From Natrarchaeobius oligotrophus (GTDB taxonomy: Archaea; Halobacteriota; Halobacteria; Halobacteriales; Natrialbaceae), in the NCBI RefSeq assembly GCF_003841465.1, contig NZ_REFZ01000003.1, positions 248,001 to 312,000 of the forward strand: DNA of 64,000 nt, read 5' to 3'. Of the stretch, positions 62-2,882 are shown piece by piece (positions within the stretch are counted from its first letter, which is position 1; every line of letters starts with the position of its first letter). The notes under the pieces are model-generated. The model was not told the origin of the DNA. It did not search any database and saw only the letters and a list, made by a program, of their open reading frames with translations. The position numbers and the translations under genes were made by a program.

Positions 62-68
62 TATTTAA
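62..68 (+). promoter_or_regulatory. TATA-like box of structured RNA copy A
   Basis: An AT-rich TATTTAA sequence is centred 27 nt before the first GGAAGCC strand of the structured RNA. The same centre-to-strand distance is found at the two other copies, at about 8249 and 52359. Haloarchaeal transcription usually starts 25-30 nt after the TATA centre, so a transcript would begin at or beside the first paired strand. The rest of positions 1-90 is AT-rich and holds no gene that I can see. Confidence 0.5.
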
Positions 69-90
69 TGCCAGAGAGTGATGAGTTGCA

Positions 91-226
91 CGGAAGCCAG
101 TCCAGCGGGCATTCGTCGAGAAATGCCCGACGTGTTGCAGCACGTCGGACGCGGCTTCCGACTCCCCTCCAGGGAATCTAGAAGCCATGCGAAAAGACAG
201 CCCCCGAGCCCATAACTGTAGGGCTC
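91..226 (+). ncRNA. Structured leader RNA, copy A
   Basis: The sequence folds into a closing stem CGGAAGCC (91-98) with GGCTTCCG (153-160) around two adjacent hairpins. These are GGGCATT/AATGCCC (107-128) and CGACGTG/CACGTCG with a 6-nt loop (128-147). A third hairpin, GAGCCC/GGGCTC (206-226), lies inside the first small ORF. GGCTTCC can alternatively pair with GAAGCC at 181-186, directly before the ATG at 187. Copies at 8276 and 52386 have the same order of elements with different stem sequences that still pair, which points to selection for RNA structure. From memory it resembles the right-end/omega-RNA of haloarchaeal IS1341-type elements, but here it stands upstream of genes and has its own TATA-like box. 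Confidence 0.6.
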
Positions 227-453
227 ACGAGCCAGGAGTATCGGCTACCGGTCACGAGCAACAGACAACCCAGAACGACCAGAAAACGCGCCCGCGCCAC
301 ACCGCGGCACGGACGAGCAACAGTACATCCCCTGCGTCCGTCCAGTTCCCCGCAGAGACACCGACACGCCACACCACCACGCAGTACGACGAACTCCTCG
401 TGGCTGGCGACGACGCGATCCTTTTCGAAGCCACGGGAGGTGACCGGCGATGA
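187..453 (+). CDS. Small basic ORF 1 of the copy A operon
   Basis: This 88-residue ORF starts at the ATG that follows the GAAGCC strand of the structured leader, and its stop overlaps the next start as ATGA. It is polar, rich in threonine, arginine and histidine, and has no recognisable domain. Its counterparts after copies B and C sit at the same place and also end in ATGA, but copy A lacks their FLP and LAR residues. It may be a leader peptide whose translation opens the RNA and is coupled to the next ORF, or an open frame over a noncoding RNA. I cannot assign a function. Confidence 0.4.
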   Translation: MRKDSPRAHNCRAHEPGVSATGHEQQTTQNDQKTRPRHTAARTSNSTSPASVQFPAETPTRHTTTQYDELLVAGDDAILFEATGGDRR

Positions 454-635
454 CCCGCGGCGGCTATACATACCACCGACCAACCAACCGCCTGTCGAAC
501 CGCCGCCGGACACTCGAGCCCCCCAACCCCACCACCAAACCCGACAACCCCACCACCAAATCCGACAACCCCACCACCAAACCCGACACCCCCACCACTG
601 CCAACCAACCCTCGCCGGGTGGTCACGATGGATAA
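450..635 (+). CDS. Small repeat-containing ORF 2 of the copy A operon
   Basis: A 61-residue ORF starts within the ATGA that ends ORF 1 and ends in ATGGATAA, so it overlaps the next gene by 8 nt. Its middle is three copies of the heptad PTTKPDN (one with S for P), encoded by a 21-nt tandem repeat. The protein is hydrophilic, lacks cysteines and looks disordered; it may serve as a linker or only as a translational coupler. A one-nucleotide ribosomal slip or an ancestral fusion could join it to the TnpB-like protein, but nothing shows this. Confidence 0.4.
   Translation: MTRGGYTYHRPTNRLSNRRRTLEPPNPTTKPDNPTTKSDNPTTKPDTPTTANQPSPGGHDG
525..587 (+). repeat. Three tandem 21-bp repeats
   Basis: The unit AACCCCACCACCAAACCCGAC occurs three times head to tail with a single C-to-T change in the second copy, and a degenerate partial unit follows. 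The repeat keeps the reading frame of small ORF 2 and encodes PTTKPDN. Near identity of the units suggests recent expansion by slippage. Confidence 0.85.
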
Positions 636-1329
636 CCCCGACCGCACCCCGATCGGCGTCGACCTCGGCGAGTACAACCTCTACACCGCCTGTCCAGCCA
701 CGATGCCGGACTCGAGGGGAGCCTGTACGATCTCCGGCGACGAGATTTGCGCTCGCCTGGACGAACTCCGCGCACAGGTCGCCGCACTGCTCGCTAGCGC
801 CTACGATCGCGACACGGTCGTCGCGTACGTGAGACAGTGTCGTAACGAGTTGCTCGAGGCCCTCGAGGACGCGGCACGAGAGCTCTGCGAGTACGCGAGC
901 GCCTACGACCAGCCCGTGCTCGTCACCGAGGACAGCCACTACGAGCCGGACCTGTGGGCGTGGCTCACCGATCCCGACGCTCACCGCGGGACGGCGTGGC
1001 TCCTCTCGATGGCCCATCTGCGCCTCCGAGCGGTCGCCGCCGAGTACGCCATCGAGGTCACGGCGGTGCCCGAAGCCTACTCCTCACAGGAGTGTCACGG
1101 CTGTGGCGTCATCGGCGACCGACCGGTCGACAAGACGCTCCGCTGTCCCAACCCGGACTGTCACGTCGACGTGGTCCACGCGGATTACAACGCCGCGAAG
1201 GTCCTCGCACAGCGGTACTACCCCGGTCAGCGGTGTGCATACCGATCCCCACTCCCGGTCACGACGGCCGAGCGTCCGGCACTCGTCGCCGACGGCGGGC
1301 CACCACAGTCGCCACGGGAGGATGCGTAA
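628..1329 (+). CDS. Compact RuvC-only TnpB-like protein
   Basis: This 233-residue protein carries the three RuvC motifs of TnpB/IS1341-type nucleases: GVDLGEYN (D12), LVTEDSHY (E101) and HADYNAA (D186). A zinc ribbon lies between the last two (C156, C159, C173, C178). Typical TnpB proteins are about 370-450 residues, and the N-terminal recognition and wedge regions are absent here, yet the catalytic acids are intact. The start at 628 was chosen because ATGGATAA overlaps the previous stop; a GTG at 619 is possible. The stop overlaps another small ORF by 8 nt. No TnpA and no transposon ends were found. It could be a stable truncated family or a remnant; the chain of overlaps favours a maintained gene. 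Confidence 0.75.
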   Translation: MDNPDRTPIGVDLGEYNLYTACPATMPDSRGACTISGDEICARLDELRAQVAALLASAYDRDTVVAYVRQCRNELLEALEDAARELCEYASAYDQPVLVTEDSHYEPDLWAWLTDPDAHRGTAWLLSMAHLRLRAVAAEYAIEVTAVPEAYSSQECHGCGVIGDRPVDKTLRCPNPDCHVDVVHADYNAAKVLAQRYYPGQRCAYRSPLPVTTAERPALVADGGPPQSPREDA

Positions 1330-1500: not shown

Positions 1501-2397
1501 ATGAGCACGAACACCGAGTCATCCGGACCGAACGAATCGCCCATCCAGACGCTACCGAACGAACTCGAGTCGCTTCGAGAGCGAATCGCCGCGCTCGAAT
1601 CCAGCCTCGAGCAGAAAAAGGAGCGTCTCGACCACCTCGAGGCCGAACTCGGCCGAGAGCGAGCAGCGAACGAGCGTCTCGAGGCACGGGTCGAAGAACT
1701 CGAGCACGCACAGACACCGATCGAGGCACGGTTAGACGCCCACGAAAAGAAGCTGAACGCGAACAAGGATCGCGTCGGCGAACTTCAGGCCCGCGAACTC
1801 GAGAAGGGCGCGCATCTGTTCGAGGAGAACGTCGACCGGAGCGAAATCGAGGTTGCGGACGGCCGCCTCGAACGGATCGGCAAAGACGACGGTCGGCAGT
1901 ACTTTCGACTCCCAGAGAGCGACGATCCACTCGAGCGTGGCGGCGACGTCGCGCTGGCACACGGCGATCTCCTGCCGATTCAGCAACTCGCCAAGATGGA
2001 CGATGACATGCTCCATGCAACGACGTCCCCGCTGCCTTCCCGGCTCGCTGCCAAGCTCTGGAAGGCGCGTACCGATCCCGGTGTGGGTGACAACCCCTGG
2101 GAGAAGGGCAGTACAGGAGTCCGTGAGTACGTTACAGCGAGCGATATGAAACACTGGATCCGCCGGCAAGAGAAGGGCATCAGTGACGAGTACGCAAAGA
2201 AACTCGTCTCGAGGACGATCGATGCCTTGCTCGACCTCTCAAAGAACCGCCTCGCGATCAAACGAACGCGACAGCGCAAGAACGGTCTCGAGTACACCGA
2301 GCGGCGCGTCCTGCTGATGGAAGATGCAGAGATCCCTGGTGAAGGAACTGGAGCACCCGAGCAAGAGTGTCCGGAGACAGCTGACGTCGACGGCTGA
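1501..2397 (+). CDS. Coiled-coil protein with C-terminal winged-helix-like part
   Basis: The 298-residue protein begins with a polar tail followed by a long charged coiled coil (about residues 20-110, repeated LESLRERIAALESSLEQK-type heptads). A globular part follows (about 110-200), then a region (about 200-270) with the helical, basic look of a winged helix, including KKLVSRTIDALLDLSKNRL. Similar proteins, as far as I recall, are common conserved hypotheticals on haloarchaeal plasmids and integrated elements, where a DNA-binding or replication/partition role is plausible. It is the last gene of a same-strand run that begins with structured RNA copy A. The function is not known. Confidence 0.75.
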   Translation: MSTNTESSGPNESPIQTLPNELESLRERIAALESSLEQKKERLDHLEAELGRERAANERLEARVEELEHAQTPIEARLDAHEKKLNANKDRVGELQARELEKGAHLFEENVDRSEIEVADGRLERIGKDDGRQYFRLPESDDPLERGGDVALAHGDLLPIQQLAKMDDDMLHATTSPLPSRLAAKLWKARTDPGVGDNPWEKGSTGVREYVTASDMKHWIRRQEKGISDEYAKKLVSRTIDALLDLSKNRLAIKRTRQRKNGLEYTERRVLLMEDAEIPGEGTGAPEQECPETADVDG

Positions 2398-2882
2398 GGC
2401 TGTCCCCGGGTTGCTCGAACCCACCTGAGAAGGCAATCACTCTGCAGGACTCACAGCATTCCCGCGCGATTGCGGTTGGTTGCCTGTCTGGTTACTTGTC
2501 TGTCTGTCTCTCGATCGGTCGTCGTCGGTCAGAGACCGCCGACTGCTCGAGAGCGTTCACTGAAGACGTCAGGTGTCACCGGGACCCTGGAAACAACTAG
2601 TGCTGTAAATCTCGAGTGTTTGTGACCACAGAATCGAAGGAAAACTCCTGTACGTCGAAAAAACGTCCTATCGCAAGATCCGACATGCAAGATGGTGTTT
2701 TGATTCTCTATTCAAATACCAGCATTGAAACCACATCGAAAGATATAATATTATAATAGGATTTCGTAACTTATTCTAAAGGTGTAGAATAAATAACTCT
2801 CTGGATGACGAGATGGACCGTAGGTAGGATACCTCCGATGGGGAGGACCTGCGCCTTAGCATACAGGATAGATACCTAATAC
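2398..2882. other. Intergenic region, no gene seen
   Basis: This 485-nt stretch holds no convincing gene. The first half is GC-rich and contains a TCTG-rich run near 2480-2510. The part after about 2690 is AT-rich with several TATA-like sequences (around 2744-2760 and 2785-2795), which probably include the promoter of the exported protein that starts at 2883. The sequence CAACTAGTGCTG near 2595 weakly resembles the end of the palindromic repeat at 41119-41208 and might be an old element scar. Confidence 0.4.

What the first reader, a model, noticed from the sequence alone, without database searches (positions are those of the whole stretch)
628..1329. RuvC-only TnpB-like protein of 233 residues with intact catalytic acids
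The D12, E101, D186 triad and the four-cysteine zinc ribbon are present, but the N-terminal half of ordinary TnpB is missing. Overlap with small ORFs on both sides (8 nt each, ATGGATAA and ATGCGTAA) argues against random decay. If conserved, this would be a minimal RNA-associated nuclease or a domesticated regulator, perhaps acting with the nearby structured RNA.
Basis: partly seen in the sequence, partly recalled or inferred. Interest (0 to 1): 0.8.

Follow-up and report, generated by a model that had tools for sequence, protein, structure and literature searches.

The report
Stand-alone TnpB-derived nuclease behind viral switch
A cut-down but intact-looking relative of the TnpB DNA-cutting enzyme is a conserved gene family in salt-loving archaea; it sits behind a virus-type repressor and a previously unlisted structured RNA leader that also precede many unrelated genes, so the enzyme is probably a regulated accessory nuclease of mobile elements rather than an enzyme guided by that RNA.

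Summary
The ORF at 628-1329 is real and not a decayed TnpB. It belongs to a monophyletic RuvC plus zinc-ribbon family: 35 matches (2 partial) in 25 of 125 Natrialbaceae genomes. I compared 33 distinct copies. All 33 keep D12/E101/D186 and the four cysteines; 32 are 227-276 aa and one is fused into a 735-aa protein. Median dN/dS is 0.32. None has the WED/REC half of TnpB, and the core has lost most of the positive charge of haloarchaeal TnpBs (-12 versus -2.5). In 32 of 33 copies the gene lies behind a divergent PhiH1-like repressor and a structured 5' leader RNA. The leader has a closing stem and a competing hairpin that ends at a start codon, with compensatory changes. The same leader and repressor precede unrelated genes in about 100 of 125 Natrialbaceae genomes and the integration operon of virus SNJ2; it is not in Rfam. 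So the RNA is a general, probably cis-regulatory, leader of virus/plasmid operons and not a dedicated guide RNA. Most likely the protein is an accessory nuclease of mobile elements, switched by a virus-derived control module. Cleavage, regulation and target are inferred, not shown.

The parts
628..1329 (+). RuvC-only TnpB-derived protein, 233 aa: RuvC-I D12, RuvC-II E101, RuvC-III D186, zinc ribbon C156/C159/C173/C178
88..231 (+). structured leader RNA core (type A1): P1 91-98/153-160 plus 100-103/147-150; P2 107-113/122-128; P3 129-134/141-146; P4 164-166/172-174; competing anti-P1 helix 153-158/181-186 ending at the ATG; P5 206-211/221-226 inside the first ORF
   Evidence: fold z -2.8; R1 match to this locus E 1e-13; covariation and conservation in homologues
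64..69 (+). TATA-like box TTTAAT, 24 nt upstream of the RNA core
   Evidence: TTTATT-like box at -26/-27 in the type C copies
187..453 (+). leader ORF of 88 aa; its ATG (187-189) is the conserved start codon at the end of the anti-P1 helix; C-terminal motif FPAxTPxR..YDELxVAGDDAILFE conserved in types A/B
450..635 (+). 61-aa ORF carried by an insertion private to the window (about 430-608); overlaps the nuclease start by 8 nt
1501..2397 (+). 298-aa coiled-coil protein ('CC'), conserved 73-84% in most plasmid copies, also present behind the same leader without the nuclease; absent from the Natrinema chromosomal copies
2398..2584 (+). conserved non-coding element 3' of CC with a sharp common end; tied to CC, not to the nuclease

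Best explanation
The ORF encodes a stand-alone nuclease made of the RuvC (RNase H fold) and zinc-ribbon half of a TnpB, fixed as a family in Natrialbaceae. It is an accessory ('cargo') gene of a mobile control module taken from temperate haloviruses and plasmids. The module is a divergent PhiH1-like winged-helix repressor, a palindromic operator-like region at the promoter, and a roughly 145-nt structured leader RNA. While the repressor is bound, the operon is silent. When it is relieved, the transcript starts at P1 of the leader; P1 and a competing hairpin ending at the start codon set translation of the first ORF, and overlapping ORFs couple translation to the nuclease. The nuclease then cuts nucleic acid without a TnpB-type omega-RNA, most plausibly DNA of competing mobile elements. 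SHOWN by sequence: family, triad, loss of WED/REC and of basic surface, module architecture, covariation in the leader, reuse of the leader for other genes and in viruses. INFERRED: nuclease activity, repressor and switch function, target, benefit.
For: 35 matches in 25 of 125 Natrialbaceae genomes; 33 of 33 distinct copies keep the triad and four Cys, dN/dS median 0.32; family monophyletic with support 100/98. Fold matches the RuvC+TNB half of Cas12f/TnpB (model pLDDT 81; Foldseek E 5.5e-9; Z 17 over 183 residues). RuvC core charge -12.3 versus -2.5 in 15 haloarchaeal TnpBs, Lys 1.9 versus 7.1. PhiH1-like repressor divergent in 32 of 32 nuclease loci with the leader and 58 of 60 other leader loci (PHROG 2440 E 1e-29; halovirus hits). 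Leader in SNJ2 E 5e-36, with its ATG equal to the annotated gp3 start. Covariation in P1 and anti-P1. TATA-like box at about -27 and palindromes. Repressors of this kind control lysogeny in phiCh1 (PMC8371274).
Against: No activity, RNA-seq or binding data were available. A RuvC domain without WED/REC has not, to my knowledge, been shown to cut on its own. The leader could be bound in trans by some product. The anti-P1 helix is strong in type C but only 4-7 bp in most type A/B copies. PADLOC finds no defence system here beyond weak Cas12 similarity. Two partial copies suggest that some copies decay.
Confidence: 0.5

Rival explanations
1. Minimal RNA-guided nuclease: the RuvC-only protein binds the 5' leader RNA (or a piece cut from it) as a scaffold and uses it to find a target, an omega-RNA system reduced to one domain.
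For: Structured RNA adjacent in 32 of 33 copies; in TnpB the RuvC domain itself contacts omega-RNA (PMC10097598); triad intact.
Against: The leader is shared with unrelated genes and viruses lacking any RuvC protein; basic RNA-holding character and WED/REC lost; the sequence after the scaffold is a conserved coding hairpin and not a variable guide; one nuclease copy (L083/L047) has no such RNA.
Confidence: 0.12
2. Partner-recruited nuclease: the protein is the cutting subunit of a larger complex (coiled-coil protein, repressor, or a host machine), as nucleases are thought to be in HRAMP.
For: A second, separate RuvC-only haloarchaeal family lies directly before RAMP/Cas7-like genes, a setting like HRAMP (PMC8730458). 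The coiled-coil gene follows the nuclease in most plasmid copies.
Against: The coiled-coil gene also occurs without the nuclease (17 of 60 other leader loci) and the Natrinema chromosomal copies have the nuclease without it. No RAMP genes seen near this family in the annotated plasmid loci.
Confidence: 0.2
3. Domesticated regulator: the protein binds DNA or RNA without cutting, like TldR.
For: Placement in a regulatory module; loss of positive charge argues against ordinary substrate binding.
Against: TldRs are nuclease-dead, whereas here D12, E101 and D186 are invariant in 33 of 33 under purifying selection.
Confidence: 0.1
4. A truncated, decaying TnpB pseudogene.
For: Private repeat-rich insertion upstream in the window; two partial copies elsewhere.
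Against: Long-lived monophyletic family, no full-length members, intact frames, purifying selection.
Confidence: 0.02

Closest known systems
TnpB (IS200/IS605 RNA-guided nuclease) and Cas12f
   Same: RuvC triad, TNB zinc ribbon, fold (Z up to 17 to Cas12f RuvC halves, 12.3 to TnpB 8h1j); 31-36% identity to haloarchaeal TnpBs
   Different: WED and REC domains absent; basic surface lost; structured RNA is 5' and shared with other genes, not a 3' omega-RNA at the transposon end; no tnpA or IS ends seen
TldR (TnpB-like nuclease-dead repressors)
   Same: TnpB-derived gene carried by mobile elements with a likely host or element role
   Different: TldRs are RNA-guided and nuclease-dead; here the triad is invariant and the RNA-binding half is missing
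HRAMP (haloarchaeal RAMP system) nucleases
   Same: Haloarchaea; stand-alone nucleases outside CRISPR; a second RuvC-only family (about 36% identical) sits in RAMP operons
   Different: The window family has no Cas5/Cas7-like neighbours in the loci examined; it forms a separate clade
PhiH1/phiCh1-type repressor and lysogeny control regions
   Same: Divergent PhiH1-like repressor (PHROG 2440), promoter with palindromes, operon start; the leader RNA is found at this place in SNJ2, HRPV9, Harhisp1 and Halfgib1
   Different: The controlled gene here is a RuvC-only nuclease instead of integration or early virus genes

Membership tests
TnpB (RNA-guided endonuclease) | RuvC catalytic triad D-E-D | tested here: met
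   33 of 33 copies; fold
TnpB (RNA-guided endonuclease) | TNB zinc ribbon CxxC...CxxxxC | tested here: met
   PF07282 E 5.9e-12; four Cys invariant
TnpB (RNA-guided endonuclease) | N-terminal WED and REC domains (TAM and omega-RNA recognition) | tested here: not met
   Length 227-276 aa in 32 of 33; no N-terminal domain by Pfam or NCBIfam; domain roles from PMC10097598
TnpB (RNA-guided endonuclease) | omega-RNA directly 3' of the gene | tested here: not met
   DNA similarity stops at the end of the nuclease gene and resumes at CC in several pairs; the conserved 3' element follows CC and is absent from the CC-less nuclease loci
IS200/IS605 element | tnpA transposase and IS ends | tested here: inconclusive
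   No tnpA annotated near the copies in L044-L048; ends not searched with an IS-specific tool
TldR | inactivated RuvC site | tested here: not met
   Triad invariant
HRAMP | Cas5/Cas7-like genes in the operon | tested here: not met
   None in the annotated plasmid loci examined; a RAMP gene is present instead at the second RuvC-only family
PhiH1-like repressor module | divergent PhiH1-like winged-helix repressor next to the controlled operon | tested here: met
   32 of 32 nuclease loci with leader, 58 of 60 other leader loci; PHROG 2440
PhiH1-like repressor module | repressor binds operators in the intergenic region | not testable with these tools
   Palindromes at the promoter seen, binding not tested
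cis-regulatory switch RNA (riboswitch-like leader) | two mutually exclusive conserved structures, one tied to the start codon | tested here: met
   P1 and anti-P1 both conserved and covarying in type C; combined p 9e-6 over 11 representatives for anti-P1
cis-regulatory switch RNA (riboswitch-like leader) | regulated expression by ligand, protein or temperature | not testable with these tools
   no experiment available

The most novel reading that the evidence does not exclude
A one-domain RuvC nuclease that is targeted without WED/REC, through the leader transcript, a partner protein or the CC-linked 3' element, so that haloarchaeal plasmids and proviruses carry a new minimal guided or partner-guided DNA-cutting system under lysogeny-type control.
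Probability: 0.12. Interest if true: 0.9.

Novelty: new variant of a known kind. Interest (0 to 1): 0.62.

Why it matters
It is a case in which the nuclease half of TnpB has become a stable gene on its own while keeping every catalytic residue, which makes it directly testable whether a RuvC/zinc-ribbon core can work without the RNA-binding half. It also exposes a widespread structured leader RNA, not in Rfam, at virus and plasmid control regions across haloarchaea, including the model virus SNJ2, with two competing folds at the start codon. Post-transcriptional control at archaeal lysogeny switches would be a new layer of regulation.

Tried and rejected
Decayed TnpB: rejected by family-wide conservation. 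Leader RNA as a dedicated guide RNA: rejected as the leading idea once R1/R2 searches found it before unrelated genes and in viruses. The 61-aa ORF as a conserved partner: rejected, private insertion. The downstream 8-nt-overlap ORF as a conserved gene: not supported. The conserved 3' element as an omega-RNA of the nuclease: it goes with the coiled-coil gene. Terminal inverted repeats between the two cassette ends: none beyond chance. Rfam: no match for window, SNJ2 or type C loci. IMG/VR scan: no relative found. First structure model from 11 sequences was poor (pLDDT 59); the second with 37 sequences was used. MAFFT misaligned P1 between leader types, so covariation was judged within types and with a three-strand test; the A/B alignment by itself gives little covariation. 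Literature: no description of the leader found in the papers held; the HRAMP paper itself was not held.

Full report
WHAT IS THERE. The window is haloarchaeal (Natrialbaceae; G000:C3:248001-312000). ORF 628-1329 encodes 233 aa with D12, E101, D186 and Cys156/159/173/178 as reported. Pfam sees only the C-terminal TNB domain (PF07282, E 5.9e-12, residues 132-192), and the small upstream ORFs show no TnpB N-terminal domain.

IT IS A FAMILY, NOT A FRAGMENT. Searches of 125 Natrialbaceae genomes gave 35 matches at 56-100% identity in 25 genomes (9 genera), two of them partial. The order and class samples added none outside this family. Plasmid records include Natronorubrum daqingense, haloarchaeon TuA4, Natrinema pallidum, Natrialba magadii pNMAG01 (two copies) and Natrinema sp. 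DC36. Among 33 distinct copies the triad, four cysteines and other motif residues (E15, W110, W112, H119, R120, N188) are invariant; 32 are 227-276 aa and one (DC36 type, L047/L083) is the N-terminal part of a 735-aa protein. dN/dS has median 0.32 over 498 pairs. Ordinary haloarchaeal TnpBs are 31-36% identical, and a tree separates the family with support 100/98 (long branches meet, so its sister group is unsettled).

FOLD AND SURFACE. An AlphaFold2 model from 37 sequences has mean pLDDT 81. It matches the RuvC+TNB half of Cas12f and TnpB (Foldseek E 5.5e-9; Z 17.0 over 183 residues to 9nzs, Z 12.3 to TnpB 8h1j; profile hits in the PDB). In TnpB the WED and RuvC domains hold omega-RNA through basic residues and WED/REC read the TAM (PMC10097598). 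Here WED/REC are absent and the RuvC core has net charge -12.3 against -2.5 in 15 haloarchaeal TnpBs, with 1.9 against 7.1 lysines. So the fold and catalytic site persist while the RNA-holding surface has eroded.

THE LEADER RNA. Between a divergent winged-helix gene and the nuclease lies a conserved structured region in 32 of 33 copies. Its architecture is P1 5' strand, P2 hairpin, P3 hairpin, P1 3' strand, P4, a copy of the P1 5' strand placed directly before an ATG, then P5 inside the first ORF. In the window this is 88-231 with ATG at 187. The P1 3' strand can pair with either copy. In type C, P1 column pair 9-92 changes G-C to C-G in six sequences while pair 92-108 of the alternative helix changes with it. 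The alternative helix beats shuffles with a combined p of 9e-6 over 11 representatives, though singly it is weak in types A2 and B. G-U pairs on the sense strand in P2 and P5 fit RNA better than single-stranded DNA. A TATA-like box lies 20-28 nt upstream in many copies, with type-specific palindromes beside or over it. Rfam has no match.

THE LEADER IS NOT SPECIFIC TO THE NUCLEASE. Model R2 hits 100 of 125 Natrialbaceae genomes, up to 12 per genome, and 41 of 87 genera in an order-wide sample; R1 hits 53 of 125. In 60 such loci without the nuclease, what follows includes tyrosine integrases near orc1/cdc6 (16), the coiled-coil gene (17), PadR-like regulators, an HNH protein and zinc-finger proteins. 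The divergent winged-helix gene is present in 58 of 60 of these and 32 of 32 nuclease loci. It is a PhiH1-like repressor (PHROG 2440 E 1e-29; relatives in BJ1, Humcor1, Harhisp1, HHPV4, SNJ2, HRPV9 and phiCh1 repR). The leader itself is in SNJ2 (E 5e-36), Harhisp1, HRPV9 and Halfgib1; in SNJ2 its ATG is the annotated start of gp3. The phiCh1 repressor is described as working like lambda cI, and similar proteins occur in integrase-bearing pleolipoviruses (PMC8371274).

CASSETTE LAYOUT. Plasmid copies run repressor, leader, (leader ORF), nuclease, coiled-coil gene, then a conserved non-coding element ending sharply at window 2584 with unrelated sequence beyond. That 3' element goes with the coiled-coil gene, not the nuclease. 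Natrinema chromosomal copies have only repressor, leader and nuclease, in several species next to a gas-vesicle-like gene cluster (cluster named from its protein sequences, by inference). The 61-aa ORF of the window is a private insertion.

HOW IT PROBABLY WORKS. Shown: conserved nuclease fold and active site, absence of the guide-binding half, placement in a virus-type control module, competing RNA folds at a start codon. Inferred: the repressor silences the operon; on relief the transcript starts at P1; the leader tunes translation, coupled by overlapping ORFs; the protein cuts nucleic acid and serves competition between mobile elements or superinfection exclusion. A partner-recruited version is the main rival, suggested by a second RuvC-only family that sits before a RAMP gene (TIGR03986, E 4.3e-5), a setting like HRAMP, whose additional nucleases are described in PMC8730458.

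MEMBERSHIP AND NOVELTY. It is TnpB-derived but fails the WED/REC and 3' omega-RNA features, so I do not file it as a TnpB. It is not a TldR (active site intact), nor HRAMP (no Cas5/Cas7-like genes in the loci examined). I call it a new variant of a known kind; the leader RNA is a separate find that may deserve its own study.

Noticed in passing
L201 1744-1909 (-), L198 2760-2886 (-), L202 1710-1881 (-), L204 1382-1539 (-); G000:C29:22382-22542 (-): The structured leader RNA is a widespread haloarchaeal element (about 100 of 125 Natrialbaceae genomes, also other families) found in viruses SNJ2, Harhisp1, HRPV9 and Halfgib1 and a second time in the window's own genome; not in Rfam.
   Followed up: yes
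L190, L191, L192, L193, L196: A second, separate RuvC-only haloarchaeal family (about 36% identical) lies directly upstream of RAMP/Cas7-like genes (TIGR03986), probably an HRAMP nuclease.
   Followed up: partly
window 2398-2584: Conserved non-coding element after the coiled-coil gene with a sharp common 3' end, unrelated sequence beyond it in each plasmid; looks like an element boundary or a structured 3' RNA.
   Followed up: partly
L047 9995-12202: In Natrinema sp. DC36 (virus-like plasmid) the RuvC domain is the N-terminal part of a 735-aa protein, without the repressor and leader RNA.
   Followed up: no
about 25-45 nt upstream of the RNA start in each locus: Palindromes at the promoter differ by leader type (e.g. 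ACTGACGACTCGTCAGT; TCGGACTAAATAGTCCGA), as expected if repressor specificities differ between elements.
   Followed up: partly
leader ORFs, e.g. window 187-250; L175, L184, L130: Unrelated proteins behind the leader share an N-terminal peptide (MxDDxSRGLESPD-like) encoded by hairpin P5.
   Followed up: partly
window about 430-608: Repeat-rich insertion (CCCGACAACCCCACCACCAAA units) that extends the chain of overlapping ORFs without breaking it.
   Followed up: partly
G276:C1:1358786-1359253, G363:C1:578143-578667: Two partial nuclease copies with a leader RNA match beside them, possible decaying copies.
   Followed up: no
L060, L062, L064, L066: Chromosomal copies in several Natrinema species sit next to a gas-vesicle-like gene cluster.
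   Followed up: no
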